Shown here piece after piece: positions 44,989 to 61,085 of a DNA stretch of 64,000 bases. A program made the position numbers and the translations under genes. This stretch comes from Polynucleobacter sp. UK-Mo-2m-Kol15 (GTDB lineage: Bacteria; Pseudomonadota; Gammaproteobacteria; Burkholderiales; Burkholderiaceae). The notes beneath the pieces are model-generated. The model was not told the DNA's origin. It saw only the letters and a program-made list of their open reading frames with translations, and searched no databases. The DNA lies in the NCBI RefSeq assembly GCF_018881505.1, contig NZ_JACVQC010000001.1:1471927-1535926 (forward strand). Direction: 5' to 3'. Numbering within the stretch: the first letter of the stretch is position 1; each line of letters opens with the position of its first letter.

Positions 44989-45033
44989 TGGCCCGCTAAG
45001 CACGATTCGAACGCATAACCCATGTCTTAGAAG
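44989..45033 (-). repeat. tRNA-Arg 3'-half fragment A
   Basis: 35 of 45 bases match the 3' half of tRNA-Arg(TCT) at 61009-61053, from the CCA end through the T arm to the anticodon loop (TGGCC at one end, CTTAGAAG at the other, plus-strand reading). The 5' half is absent. It is the outermost of four same-orientation copies and a candidate relic attachment site. Confidence 0.8.
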
Positions 45034-45087
45034 CTTTAAATAAGTGTAAGAAAACAAAAAATCTTTTAGGCAATAGTGGCGAGTAAC

Positions 45088-45120
45088 AAAAAACCACCCG
45101 AAGGTGGTTTTTGTGTTTTT
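45088..45120. terminator. bidirectional terminator
   Basis: ACCACC-CGAA-GGTGGT has A-runs before and T-runs after on both strands. It is 121 bases after the CMD-family gene and 94 bases before the stop of the convergent monooxygenase-like gene. Confidence 0.88.
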
Positions 45121-45213
45121 TGCTAGCATAAAGTAATTTTTTAGTTCAACGTATTTAAGTTTGCAAATACATTTTGCCAGCCATCCTTAGTTTCCTGATT
45201 TTGTCTTGTTTAA

Positions 45214-45522
45214 TCAGCTTTTGGGATTCATGCGATAGAACACTAACAGATCACTTCTTTCTACGGGTGCCGCAAGATTGGATTGGATGTCAGCTAAAAA
45301 ATCTGCAAAGTCTTTTGTATCTTCAAGGGACGCAGCCTGCTCTGCATTCTCCCAAATTCCGAAGCCTTCAACAATATTCATCGCTTGATTACCCACGATG
45401 ATGACATCATGTAAATCAGGATGGCCTGCCAATACCTCTGTAGCAAACTGATGAAAGCGATCACAAACTTTTTGGAATGAGCCGGGCTTAGCTTGAAGTG
45501 ACATGTGTGCAACGTGTGACAT
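45214..45522 (-). CDS. antibiotic biosynthesis monooxygenase-like (ABM) protein
   Basis: A 102-residue ferredoxin-fold ABM domain. SHVAHMSLQAKPGSFQKVCD and ASLEDTKDFADFLADIQSNL are typical of the family. The ATG at 45522 has AGGGG ten bases before it. Family members are small cofactor-free monooxygenases or heme/quinone-handling proteins; nothing here identifies a substrate. It is the only gene between tRNA-Arg fragments A and B. Confidence 0.75.
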   Translation of the reverse strand: MSHVAHMSLQAKPGSFQKVCDRFHQFATEVLAGHPDLHDVIIVGNQAMNIVEGFGIWENAEQAASLEDTKDFADFLADIQSNLAAPVERSDLLVFYRMNPKS

Positions 45523-45653
45523 TTTATTTCCCCTATATTTGATTTGTGCGGCTAATGATATCAAGCCTAGATGATAGTTTAAATGGATGTTTGCACTAAA
45601 TTAAGGCAGGGGGAAATCAGGTTTTGAATGATTTCATGTGCCAGCCCGACCTT

Positions 45654-57817: not shown

Positions 57818-60076
57818 TTACAGGCGATGCTCATAAAAAAATGCCGCCCCAGCACCATTAAGACCATAGGGCCTTTGCTCATACATCAAACCACCCTTAA
57901 TGCGACTAACGGCATTTAGACGATGATGAACATCAAAATTTACTTGACTTGAATTTATAAAATTACTAAATCCTGATGAATAGTTTTGATATCCGATATT
58001 TCCACTTGAATCGATAGTTGAAGATAATTTTGTATTGAGTTGACCCGACATTGCTTGCTCTTGCTTAAAGCCAATACTCAAAGTAGTTTGTTTGCTTAAG
58101 AAGTGGTCTGCGCCAACCTTAAATACAGCATATTTACCGCTATCAAAAGAAGTTAAGCCTGTAGAGCTCGCATTAAAGCTCGCCATCTCAACTCCGGTTC
58201 TAAATTTCGTTGTACCGTTGAAAAGTGAGTGAGAATAAAAACTGCCCAATGAGGATGCTTGGGCATTGCTAAGTCCAAATACCCCACTTGCATTCAATCC
58301 TAGGGGTTGCGTAAATGAATTTGCTAAAGAATAAGTCAGTCCATACGCAAAATTTTCATGCTCACGCTGAGAAACAAAACTATACGAGGTTCGAGACCCC
58401 ATCATCGATCTATTCTGGGTTAACTCATTAGCGTTATAGCCGCTTTGAGTATTTGGCATGCTCCCCATCATAGCTATCTTTGTTTTACCAAAATTAGTTG
58501 CGTATCCAAATCCATTTGTGTTGGTAGCTGAATCATTAAGATGCGGTAAGTAGTGAAGATTAAGCTGTTTGCTTAACGACTGATCAGATCTGATGCCGCT
58601 GGAAAAAGCAAAAGAATGGCCAAATTGATTTAAACCAACCGAAGAATGTAGGCCTTGAAGATGATTAAATTTAATCCCCTCCTCGTCACCAGTATTAACC
58701 GGCATAGGCTCAGACATGGTAGCCATATGCCTTACGGCAAAATCAGACTGAATCTTTGATTCCTGAACAAAGTTTGATGCAGACACCCAAAAGGGGGCTT
58801 TTTGATAGCTATCAACCAATAAAATCTTTGAGTTACGCATTGAGCTGGCCACAGAGCTTGGAAGCGTTATTTTTGAAATAGAAACCGATCCTGATGAGCC
58901 GCTGGTATGTGAGCCTGTTGGCAAAGAAAGGCCGCCAACTGGGTTTGATGCTGCCTCCAAGTCCATTAACCCTTGACCATAAATCGTAGAATCCGCCCAA
59001 ATGCCTGTCTTATTTGCAGTGGTAAGCAACCTTGCTGCTATGTCTTGATAGGATAGATTTGGGAACATACTCTTTAAGCCTGCAATTGCTCCGCTCACTA
59101 ATGGCGCAGCCATAGATGTCCCTGACATCTTTGTATAGCTCCCATTGTTATACATTGAATATAGGCCATTAGTGGCAGAGTTATCACCACCTCCGGGAGC
59201 AGCCAAACACCATGCTGCAGATACACCGCATCTATTTGAATAATTAGTTATAGTACCGCTAGAGTCAGTCGCTGCAACTGCAAGCCAACCTGCCTGCAGT
59301 CCTGAAATGCGGTAAGGCAATCCTGCTTGATAGCTAACTTGGGTAAATCCACTATTACCAGCAGCCCAAACTGCTACCCCACCATTTGCAACATAGGACT
59401 GATACCCCGCAATTGAATTAGGTATTGCTGCATTTAATTGGCTGGCAGTTACCGAGGTAATAGTAGTAGTAGAGCCCCATGAATTATTAATAATATAGGC
59501 ACCGGCGTTATATGCCCTAGTTGCAGAGGCGCCAATCTGCGCATCGGTAGCAGTAATGGCACCAGTGGAGTCGCCAATCCTTAAATTAAGAATGCTCGCA
59601 TTGTATGCAATTCCATGCATGCCGGATGAATTCATGGGTGCGGCAATTAGTCCTGCAACATGGGTTCCATGCCCATTGGGATCAGATGTTGAACCCGATA
59701 TGTTTTGAACATAGTCATAGCTATTTGAATTAATAGAAATCTGAGAACCTGTTGAAGCTTCGGCTGAATTAATCCCAGTATCTGCAACTGCAACAATAAT
59801 ATTTACTCCAGTACCAGCAGTGGATTCAGATGGATTGCCTGCAGTACCTCCATTTTGGGCGTACCATCGATAATGACCGTTGTAATACATTGATGAGGCT
59901 TTAACCAAAGTTAACCCAGACTGAGCGCTATATTCTGAGGTTTCAAATGCAGAAGCGCTCGTATACAAAAGAGTTCGCGTTGATCCAGAAGAGCTAGATG
60001 ATCCACCACCCCCACCACCGCCAGCACATGCGACCAAAACAAAAGGGAGTAAGAAGATAAATAACCTTTGACTCAT
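57818..60076 (-). CDS. subtilisin-family lipoprotein autotransporter (SphB1/NalP-like)
   Basis: A 752-residue surface protease. The lipobox VLVAC (C17) is followed by a long Gly/Ser run. An S8 peptidase domain spans about 90-380, with D99 in AVADTGIN, H136 in NGHGTHVAG, oxyanion N241 in AAGNSG and S321 in MSGTSMAAP. The C-terminal part (about 470-752) has alternating amphipathic strands, consistent with an autotransporter beta-barrel, although the last residue is Leu rather than an aromatic. A lipidated S8 autotransporter resembles Bordetella SphB1 and Neisseria NalP, which process surface proteins. GGAGATATTCAG precedes the ATG. Confidence 0.85.
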   Translation of the reverse strand: MSQRLFIFLLPFVLVACAGGGGGGGSSSSSGSTRTLLYTSASAFETSEYSAQSGLTLVKASSMYYNGHYRWYAQNGGTAGNPSESTAGTGVNIIVAVADTGINSAEASTGSQISINSNSYDYVQNISGSTSDPNGHGTHVAGLIAAPMNSSGMHGIAYNASILNLRIGDSTGAITATDAQIGASATRAYNAGAYIINNSWGSTTTITSVTASQLNAAIPNSIAGYQSYVANGGVAVWAAGNSGFTQVSYQAGLPYRISGLQAGWLAVAATDSSGTITNYSNRCGVSAAWCLAAPGGGDNSATNGLYSMYNNGSYTKMSGTSMAAPLVSGAIAGLKSMFPNLSYQDIAARLLTTANKTGIWADSTIYGQGLMDLEAASNPVGGLSLPTGSHTSGSSGSVSISKITLPSSVASSMRNSKILLVDSYQKAPFWVSASNFVQESKIQSDFAVRHMATMSEPMPVNTGDEEGIKFNHLQGLHSSVGLNQFGHSFAFSSGIRSDQSLSKQLNLHYLPHLNDSATNTNGFGYATNFGKTKIAMMGSMPNTQSGYNANELTQNRSMMGSRTSYSFVSQREHENFAYGLTYSLANSFTQPLGLNASGVFGLSNAQASSLGSFYSHSLFNGTTKFRTGVEMASFNASSTGLTSFDSGKYAVFKVGADHFLSKQTTLSIGFKQEQAMSGQLNTKLSSTIDSSGNIGYQNYSSGFSNFINSSQVNFDVHHRLNAVSRIKGGLMYEQRPYGLNGAGAAFFYEHRL

Positions 60077-60200
60077 CTGAATATCTCCATTTAAATTGGT
60101 ACATATAAATTATTAAATTTATAGTTAATTTATAAACCAATTCTTGTAAAAACTTTGAAGTATTGTCTACAAATACTGGAATACCCTTAGGAATATTTGA

Positions 60201-60629
60201 ATGATTCCATTTAAGCTGCTCTCTAAGATAATGCTGATTTTTATAAGCGCTATTTATTCTAGTCAATTTATATCTGCAGGAAGTCTAAGTGGCAATATTT
60301 CAATTGCTACATCAAGCTTGCCTTCTGAAATATCGCAACAATTTAGCCTAAAAAAGATCTCAAATAATCAGGATGTAAGCATATTGCCTGAAGAGTTTCG
60401 TAAACTTATTACGTCAATCAATGACAATGACTATTACTACGCTGTTAGCCCAACTAAAGGTTCTGGTGGATATATTTTTGAAGTTAATAGAACTCAAAAT
60501 GTTTACGAAATTTGCTTAAGAACGCCAAAGCCGATGTCAGCGGTAACAATGGCCGTAACGACTCCAATTGCCTTAATTACGGTTCGCAAGGGAGAAGAAC
60601 TAAATCCCATGATTGTTGAATGCAAATAA
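60201..60629 (+). CDS. small exported protein of unknown function
   Basis: A 142-residue protein with a signal peptide (LIFISAIYSSQFISAG) and AGGA eight bases before its ATG. The mature part is strand-rich (YYYAVSPTKGSGGYIFEVNR, TPIALITVRKGEELNP) with two cysteines, one near the C-terminus. I do not recognise it. It is divergent from the subtilisin autotransporter, so it could be co-regulated with or a substrate of that protease; this is only positional inference. Confidence 0.65.
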   Translation: MIPFKLLSKIMLIFISAIYSSQFISAGSLSGNISIATSSLPSEISQQFSLKKISNNQDVSILPEEFRKLITSINDNDYYYAVSPTKGSGGYIFEVNRTQNVYEICLRTPKPMSAVTMAVTTPIALITVRKGEELNPMIVECK

Positions 60630-61008
60630 TTTCCCATCCTATATCCGAATTTCACCTTATTTATTGATCGTTAGTAGCATCAAATCGTAGGTAATTAATA
60701 AATGCCCTCCATGCACAGCAATCCATTAGACAAATCCATTACATGTTTTGCAGAAATTTTCTGATACGACTACAAAACAATGAGGATGCATCCAGGGCAA
60801 TGTTTGCCTATTTTGAGACCCTATGGGTTGGGTGGTAAGTGTTGTTGAAGTATCTATCTATTATTTATGACCCCATTACCTAGTATGCGTATTAAATGCA
60901 ACCTCACTTGGTCAAAACAGGTGTATAAATTGAATCAAGTCGGCGTTATCGGATTTTGAGGTTTTCACCCGCTAGCCTTTGTTTTAGTTGCTTTTGGCTT
61001 TGTATTTT
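60630..61008. other. gap between the exported protein and tRNA-Arg
   Basis: 379 bases. No open frame with a ribosome-binding site, no tRNA fragment and no strong terminator was seen. This is the region directly 3' of the intact tRNA-Arg, where the most recent island border would lie. Confidence 0.4.
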
Positions 61009-61085
61009 TGGCCTGCCCAGCACGATTCGAACGTGCGACCTACGCCTTAGAAGGGCGTTGCTCTATCCAGCTGAGCTATGGGCAG
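61009..61085 (-). tRNA. tRNA-Arg (anticodon TCT)
   Basis: A complete cloverleaf on the minus strand: acceptor CTGCCCA/TGGGCAG, D stem GCTC/GAGC, anticodon arm ACGCC-CTTCTAA-GGCGT with TCT, T arm GCACG-TTCGAAT-CGTGC, and encoded GCCA. Its 3' half is repeated in four decayed copies to the left, so it is probably the integration target of past elements. Confidence 0.97.

What the first reader, a model, noticed from the sequence alone, without database searches (positions are those of the whole stretch)
44989..61085. Four decayed copies of the tRNA-Arg(TCT) 3' half mark a stepwise-built island
Direct repeats at 44989, 45654, 53993 and 55135 match the intact tRNA-Arg from the CCA end to the anticodon loop (35/45, 37/45, 32/40 and 42/45). 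All are in the same orientation, and all lie on the 3' side of the tRNA. That is what repeated tyrosine-integrase insertion at a tRNA leaves behind: each event rebuilds the tRNA and leaves a 3' fragment at the far border. The nearest copy is the best preserved. No integrase remains, so the segments look domesticated. They carry mostly nutrient uptake, catabolic and surface genes rather than phage genes.
Basis: partly seen in the sequence, partly recalled or inferred. Interest (0 to 1): 0.78.

Follow-up and report, generated by a model that had tools for sequence, protein, structure and literature searches.

The report
Old tRNA-Arg gene-cassette island with scars
The four broken tRNA pieces are real scars of DNA packages that slotted in beside an arginine tRNA gene; related freshwater bacteria carry fresh versions of such packages at the same spot, many of them without a recognisable enzyme of their own for moving.

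Summary
Four decayed, same-strand copies of the tRNA-Arg(TCT) 3' half lie on its 3' side (35, 37, 34 and 39 of 45, ungapped; the best of 100 simulated windows reaches 29). Relatives show the process in fresh form: 67 of 121 genomes of the genus have two or more matches to the fragment model, many as arrays of exact 45-base copies beside the same tRNA pair; empty sites exist; six cassette families recur between genomes with unrelated left neighbours. Next to the core most fresh cassettes carry one of two conserved arms (about 80 or 150 bases). A model of one arm class, trained only on relatives, places the flanks of fragments B and D second and third among its hits in the own genome; the first lies at a tRNA-Lys array. 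An integrase clade begins 113-117 bp from the core in 8 of the 9 genomes that have it, but 62 of 79 cassettes carry none of the three recombinase types I found. Three details fail: B-C is not one unit, A-B lies beyond an apparently older ABC operon, and the age order is only a weak trend. Known kind (tRNA-targeted additive island); the shared modular ends seem new.

The parts
44530..44967 (+). Carboxymuconolactone decarboxylase family gene (CMD): last gene of the left flank
   Evidence: PF02627 E 1.4e-23. The CMD tail precedes the core at fragment A, the tRNA itself in G024, and the first core copy in G105 and G072.
44989..45033 (+). Fragment A, tRNA-Arg 3' half, 35/45; left border scar
   Evidence: DNA alignment to G024 runs from within CMD through the core and stops at 45033. 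Arm class not identified (18/40 to class I, background P 0.075; no class I model hit there).
45214..45564 (-). 116-aa ORF, the only ORF of 90 aa or more between A and B; no family found
   Evidence: DNA 71-81% alike at other places in 9 genomes
45654..45698 (+). Fragment B, tRNA-Arg 3' half, 37/45
45699..45767 (+). Decayed class II arm beside B
   Evidence: model R2 (19 relatives' arms, no window sequence): 45711-45767, E 3.1e-5 in the window, E 0.001 in the own genome
45810..48999 (-). ABC transporter operon (ATPase, two permeases, family-3 binding protein): probably an older resident
   Evidence: between left flank and tRNA with no fragment in 6 relatives; tree
49191..53754 (.). TauD dioxygenase, TctC, aldehyde dehydrogenase, TctC genes: cargo
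   Evidence: Aldedh-TctC part 86% identical in G001:C12 beside a class-II-like arm
53993..54037 (+). Fragment C, tRNA-Arg 3' half, 34/45
   Evidence: about 600 bp from here rightwards shared with G012, G018, G031 at 81-85%
54379..54560 (-). Glycine riboswitch, tandem (second aptamer by eye); part of segment C-D
   Evidence: RF00504 54379-54483, E 5.9e-4, 31.5 bits, just under the gathering score of 32
54736..55050 (-). 104-aa ORF that ends a segment
   Evidence: 75% identical homologue just before a core copy in G016
55135..55179 (+). Fragment D, tRNA-Arg 3' half, 39/45 ungapped
55181..55246 (+). Decayed class II arm beside D
   Evidence: model R2: E 5.3e-5 in the window, E 0.0018 in the own genome
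55607..60629 (.). Cargo of D-tRNA: TPR protein, 290-aa ORF, S8 (subtilase) peptidase, 142-aa ORF
   Evidence: only short pieces (longest 467 bp at 64%) in 10 of the other 120 genomes, at scattered places
60877..61008 (+). Conserved right end of the last element, next to the tRNA
   Evidence: about 100 bp alike in G031, where it ends the INT360 element, and about 126 bp alike at an off-site copy in G069
61009..61085 (-). Intact tRNA-Arg(TCT), the attachment gene
61122..63795 (.). Right flank: tRNA-Pro(TGG), 121-aa ORF, TonB-dependent receptor
   Evidence: a TonB homologue lies right of the tRNA in 19 of 24 relatives mapped

Best explanation
The region is an old, decayed cassette island at tRNA-Arg(TCT). 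Mobile cassettes, each beginning with a 45-base copy of the tRNA 3' half (core) plus a conserved arm that looks like an integrase-binding region, were inserted by a tyrosine integrase into the tRNA. Each insertion gave the gene a new 3' half and left the old half at the far end. Shown: fragments, empty sites, fresh arrays, cassettes recurring as units, arms at B and D, integrases tied to the site in relatives. Inferred: the reaction itself, that the arms bind integrase, and that integrase-less cassettes are moved in trans by elements such as the INT360 or int190/c3 types. Fragments A-B probably reached their place by recombination of the left flank or by an off-site insertion.
For: Fragments far above chance. 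G024 has CMD directly against the intact tRNA, and its alignment to the window ends at the last base of fragment A. Of 24 relatives mapped (a chosen set), 10 have no second core copy of 30/45 or better in the stretch taken, 13 do, and one is split over two contigs. 67 of 121 genomes have two or more matches (counted from its table, own genome included). Six cassette families without a found recombinase recur at 86-93% identity; 0 of 9 left outer flanks compared are alike. Arms conserved for about 80 and 150 bp, then near background. Arm model without window sequence puts B and D 2nd and 3rd in the own genome (E 0.001, 0.0018; next 0.17; 150 of 1150 candidates scored). Integrase clade of 44% identity or more in 9 of 121 genomes; in 8 of 9 its alignment starts 113-117 bp from a core copy. 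int190 and c3 occur together in 10 of 10 class I segments that have either.
Against: A and B lie left of an ABC operon that abuts CMD in G008, G021 and G020 (a CMD remnant in G018), although the window's ABC copy groups inside that clade. No class I arm is found at A and no known arm at C. B-C and C-D are composite. Decay order is weak. No excision, circle or integrase activity was observed. The class I model's best hit in the window (49054, E 0.073) has no core.
Confidence: 0.87

Rival explanations
1. The segments once carried their own integrases and lost them by decay; there is no mobilisation in trans, only ordinary integrative elements that piled up.
For: The window's cores and arms are decayed and no recombinase was found there. 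17 of 79 segments in relatives carry one of three recombinase types; other types would have been missed.
Against: 62 of 79 segments lack all three types, and 28 of these 62 have an exact left core, 21 both cores exact. Six such cassette families, three of them under 0.9 kb, recur in different contexts.
Confidence: 0.3
2. Homologous recombination between tRNA 3'-half repeats, not an integrase, shuffles and accretes the segments.
For: Exact 45-bp direct repeats could recombine; arrays differ in content between genomes.
Against: An integrase clade sits 113-117 bp from the core in 8 of 9 genomes. Conserved arms flank the core. A first insertion into an empty site is not explained.
Confidence: 0.08
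3. A and B are not scars of insertion at the tRNA in its present place but a two-core piece inserted or recombined between CMD and the ABC operon; only C and D belong to the tRNA-proximal island.
For: CMD and ABC abut in three relatives, a CMD remnant and ABC in a fourth, and the ABC tree places the window's copy inside that clade. Off-site core copies exist, e.g. G031:C1:1575714 with its arm.
Against: The CMD-core junction at A is also the left border in G024, G105 and G072, which suggests that A marks the ancestral border. B carries a class II arm followed closely by a gene, as ordinary cassettes do.
Confidence: 0.4
4. The four fragments are chance or RNA-gene-like repeats unrelated to insertion.
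For: None found.
Confidence: 0.01

Closest known systems
Additive flexible genomic islands with tRNA targets (Ca. Methylopumilus fGI-2, PMC10872708; Ca. Actinomarinales, PMC7771536; Alteromonas fGI1, PMC4119200; passages seen, not whole papers)
   Same: Gene cassettes added or lost at a fixed tRNA; direct repeats of part of the tRNA mark cassette ends; variable length (Methylopumilus 330 bp-42 kb); transport and metabolic cargo.
   Different: In the passages seen, no conserved arm beside the repeat, no arm shared between two tRNA targets and no count of integrase-bearing against integrase-less cassettes is described. The repeat is 45 nt here, 20 nt in Methylopumilus, 52 nt in one Alteromonas island.
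Tycheposons (Prochlorococcus; in Methylophilaceae, PMC10872708, passages seen; original paper recalled, not read)
   Same: Cargo islands at tRNA genes, tyrosine recombinases, nutrient-related cargo.
   Different: No recombinase found in the window; hallmark tycheposon genes were not searched for; the arrays here are many same-strand cassettes of 0.3-21 kb.
Integron cassette arrays (recalled; described in passages of PMC4119200)
   Same: Tandem, same-orientation cassettes bounded by recombination sites, most without a recombinase.
   Different: Sites are tRNA 3' halves with long arms, not attC; no integron integrase was recognised among the recombinases examined; cassettes reach about 21 kb.
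Classical tRNA-integrating islands and integrative elements with their own integrase (recalled)
   Same: Tyrosine integrase next to the att core, core in the tRNA 3' half.
   Different: 17 of 79 segments in relatives carry such a gene; none was found in the window.

Membership tests
Additive flexible genomic island at a tRNA | Fixed tRNA locus with presence/absence of cassettes between relatives | tested here: met
   empty and occupied sites at the same tRNA locus
Additive flexible genomic island at a tRNA | Direct repeats of the tRNA 3' part at cassette borders | tested here: met
   in 9 of 9 pairs compared, similarity does not continue left of the 45-base copy
   B-C and C-D are composite; A-B and D-tRNA are absent as blocks elsewhere
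Tycheposon | tRNA-linked, with a tyrosine recombinase in the element | tested here: not met
   none found in the window; present in some relatives' elements
Tycheposon | Hallmark replication and accessory genes of tycheposons | not tested
   definition recalled only
Integron | Integron integrase and attC sites | tested here: inconclusive
   borders are tRNA 3' halves and the three recombinase examples match general phage integrase families; no dedicated attC or IntI search was run
Autonomous integrative element | Own integrase beside the att core | tested here: not met
   window: none found
Integrase-type attachment site (core plus arms) | Conserved arm next to the core containing short direct repeats | tested here: met
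   the class II arm ends in a repeated TGTGYRAT motif (read by eye)
Integrase-type attachment site (core plus arms) | Binding by the cognate integrase | not testable with these tools
   needs protein

The most novel reading that the evidence does not exclude
Polynucleobacter has a genus-wide, integron-like cassette economy built on tRNA genes. Mostly integrase-less cassettes carry a two-part end, a replaceable 45-base tRNA 3' half (Arg or Lys) plus a shared arm, and are moved in trans by a few integrase-bearing elements of at least two kinds. Cargo such as nutrient-uptake genes can pass between the tRNA-Arg and tRNA-Lys arrays.
Probability: 0.4. Interest if true: 0.78.

Novelty: new variant of a known kind. 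Interest (0 to 1): 0.58.

Why it matters
Freshwater bacteria with small genomes vary much of their gene content in islands whose moving agent is often not seen. Recurring arms, an integrase clade at a fixed 113-117 bp from the core and sharp cassette borders give concrete, testable parts for how such islands move: which integrase reads which arm, and whether cassettes without an integrase travel in trans. The scars in the window then record past insertions.

Tried and rejected
Class I arm at A: tested by identity (18/40, background 7.5%) and by model; not supported. A hidden fifth scar between the ABC operon and TauD, suggested by a weak class I hit at 49054 (E 0.073): no core there, rejected. 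Helper phage: the exact 45-mer and one class I arm pattern gave 0 exact matches in viral contigs; INT360 matches 629 phage records, all under 60% identity (best listed 33%), c3 none. A strict age ladder: only a weak trend, G069 and G073 run the other way. Arms as a wide feature of the order: 2 of 200 genomes, the own one and G226 of another family (E 2.4e-4; strict filters, 23 candidates scored per genome); G226's core was not identified. A short stretch of A-B (about 45085-45122) matches most of the 115 genomes with a hit; read by eye it is a terminator-like hairpin, so it says nothing about cassettes. The 118 record stretches with the 45-mer (capped; 80 shown there) include Polynucleobacter isolates, unnamed betaproteobacterial and Burkholderiaceae bins, and bins labelled Legionella, Noviherbaspirillum and Methylopumilus, which I take for mis-binned contigs (not tested). 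Fetched but hardly used: L150-L152 (scanned for tRNAs only), L330-L332 (not analysed).
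Full report
Observation. The window holds an intact tRNA-Arg(TCT) at 61009-61085 on the minus strand beside tRNA-Pro(TGG). Its 45-base 3' half recurs on the same strand at 44989 (35/45), 45654 (37/45), 53993 (34/45) and 55135 (39/45 ungapped); nothing else in the window exceeds 26/45, and 100 simulated windows never exceeded 29/45.

Genus-wide picture. A sequence-only model of the five copies matches 114 of 121 genomes of the genus at E 0.05, and 67 of 121 have two or more matches (counted from its table, own genome and off-site matches included). 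Some genomes have arrays of exact copies at the same locus, for instance seven within about 51 kb in G069, the tRNA included; also G107, G007, G012, G073, G031. Records with the exact 45-mer include many named Polynucleobacter isolates (capped).

Empty and filled sites. I mapped the locus in 24 relatives, chosen because they had many copies or matched the window's DNA, not at random. In 10 the tRNA is the only copy of 30/45 or better in the stretch taken: CMD against tRNA (G024), a 118-aa ORF against tRNA (G013, G035, G002), the ABC operon against tRNA (G008, G021, G036, G033, G017, G023). In 13 there are further copies; G020 is split over two contigs. DUF3313 appears on the left in 17 of 24 stretches and a TonB homologue on the right in 19 of 24; some stretches do not reach that far and a few (G012, G016, G111) differ. 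The DNA alignment of the window to G024 runs from within CMD to 45033, the last base of fragment A. The CMD-core junction also forms the left border in G105 and G072.

Cassettes recur as units. Among 85 segments between copies, 11 between-genome pairs match over at least 70% of the query segment; 10 of these 11, in six cassette families, contain none of the three recombinase types. In 9 pairs checked, 0 of 9 left outer flanks (500 bp) are alike; on the right 6 of 9 show nothing, 2 show only 45-47 bp of the next arm, and 1 (G004/G014) is the chromosome beyond the tRNA. The G031 member of one family is longer than its partners, so that match is partial. For the window itself, D-tRNA is found in no other of 120 genomes beyond pieces of up to 467 bp at scattered places, and A-B in none beyond its ORF (about 180-340 bp, 71-81%, in 9 genomes) and a terminator-like hairpin; these searches scored only 2 and 4 candidate places per genome.

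Arms and ends. Beside the core, on the anticodon-loop side, most fresh copies carry one of two conserved arms. Of 137 copies of 30/45 or better in 54 stretches, 33 have class I, 31 class II (window B and D included), 45 are full or near-full tRNA genes, and 28 are unclassified, window A and C among them (cut-off 24/40, reached by 0.035% of random places). Conservation runs to about 150 bp (class I) and 80 bp (class II) and then drops to near background. The other cassette end is also alike in families: 53 of 113 right ends join clusters across genomes at a score cut-off for which no shuffle control was run. A class II model built from 19 relatives' arms with no window sequence gives, in the own genome, a tRNA-Lys array (E 2.8e-8), then the stretch right of fragment B (0.001) and the stretch right of D (0.0018); the next is 0.17 (150 of 1150 candidates scored). 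In the window alone, with full scoring, B and D have E 3.1e-5 and 5.3e-5 and the next 0.078. An earlier nhmmer test put the same two places on top but with E 0.13 and 0.72. For A and C no such arm was found; C and about 600 bp right of it are shared with G012, G018 and G031 at 81-85%. About 100-126 bp left of the tRNA match the right end of the integrase-bearing element in G031 and an off-site copy in G069.

Recombinases. Three types occur in these islands in relatives. INT360 (open frames of 339-374 aa; phage integrase match) forms a clade of 44% identity or more in 9 of 121 genomes; in 8 of 9 the alignment starts 113-117 bp from a core copy. The ninth, G034, has an internal stop and I did not locate a core there. 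A 188-aa integrase (int190) and a 402-416 aa divergent one (c3; phrog_1 E 1e-28 for one member) occur together in 10 of 10 class I segments that have either. Recombinases are in 10 of 30 class I, 2 of 25 class II (both G073), 4 of 4 full-tRNA and 1 of 20 unclassified segments: 17 of 79 in all. Of the 62 without, 28 have an exact left core. I left out the window's genome, one off-site locus (G114:C6) and segments over 25 kb; other recombinase families would be missed.

A second array. In the same genome tRNA-Lys(TTT) at C10:1965126-1965201 is followed, within 3.3 kb, by two exact and one slightly altered 45-base copies of its 3' half and by more decayed ones further on, with class-II-like arms. 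Lys cores stand right beside arm hits also in G044 and at two places in G045 (45/45), G013 (43/45), G001:C55 (41/45) and G019 (37/45). In G001 the Aldedh-TctC module of the window (86% identical, window 51303-53767) lies 317 bp from such an arm, whose core is cut down to about 11 Lys-like bases. So one cargo module is associated with both kinds of array. 17 of 61 genomes of the genus have a class II arm at E 0.001; in a sample of 200 genomes of the order only the own genome and one of another family do (strict filters).

What does not fit. The ABC operon abuts CMD within 1 bp in G008, G021 and G020, and a CMD remnant within 2 bp in G018. The window's ABC copy groups with those of G012, G018, G008, G021 and G020 with support 1.0. 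Thus A and B stand left of an operon that was probably there first. Either the left flank was recombined from a lineage with CMD against a core, or the A-B piece was inserted off-site, or the scars were deleted in parallel elsewhere; I cannot decide. B-C and C-D are composite. The rank correlation of copy identity with closeness to the tRNA is positive on average (0.37, 10 arrays with the window, p 0.016) but not a ladder.

Literature. I saw passages, not whole papers, of PMC10872708, PMC7771536 and PMC4119200, which describe tRNA-targeted cassette islands with tRNA-end repeats in Methylophilaceae, Actinomarinales and Alteromonas. The Polynucleobacter island paper (Hoetzinger 2017, PMC5244307; seen as a reference) is not held, so I cannot say whether it reports this locus. 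My searches (listings) showed no title or abstract on shared arms or this array in Polynucleobacter; the library lacks most subscription journals.

Verdict. A real, well supported scar field of a known kind, with a modular end structure that I did not find described and with integrases tied to the site, which make the mechanism testable.

Noticed in passing
G000:C10:1965126-1975850 (locus L061): Second array in the same genome: tRNA-Lys(TTT) followed by repeated copies of its own 45-base 3' half (L061 4039, 4905, 6356, decayed near 9168 and 13769) with arms like the class II arm of the tRNA-Arg array.
   Followed up: partly
L061:9019-9203: Inside the tRNA-Lys array a decayed Arg core (35/45) and a decayed Lys core sit about 100 bp apart across one stretch; a similar stretch follows exact Arg cores off-site in G069 (C1:348271-348315) and G114 (C6) (by eye).
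   Followed up: partly
54379-54560 (-): Island-borne glycine riboswitch (one aptamer just under the Rfam threshold, second by eye) with only a 64-aa ORF downstream before fragment C; similar DNA is listed at other places in nine genomes of the genus.
   Followed up: partly
G000:C10:1831587-1831751: A 165-bp copy (85%) of the CMD 3' end, the left flank of the island, lies elsewhere in the genome and stops just after the CMD stop codon.
   Followed up: no
G107:C1:818024, G018:C1:880451, G031:C1:833425: Elements with INT360 carry a full or near-full second tRNA-Arg gene (73, 77 and 75 of 77), not just the 3' half.
   Followed up: partly
G226:C6:836-906: One genome of another family of the order has a class-II-like arm; the sequence before it was not identified as a tRNA core.
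   Followed up: partly
6211-6293 (-): sucA RNA motif (RF01070, 53.3 bits).
   Followed up: no
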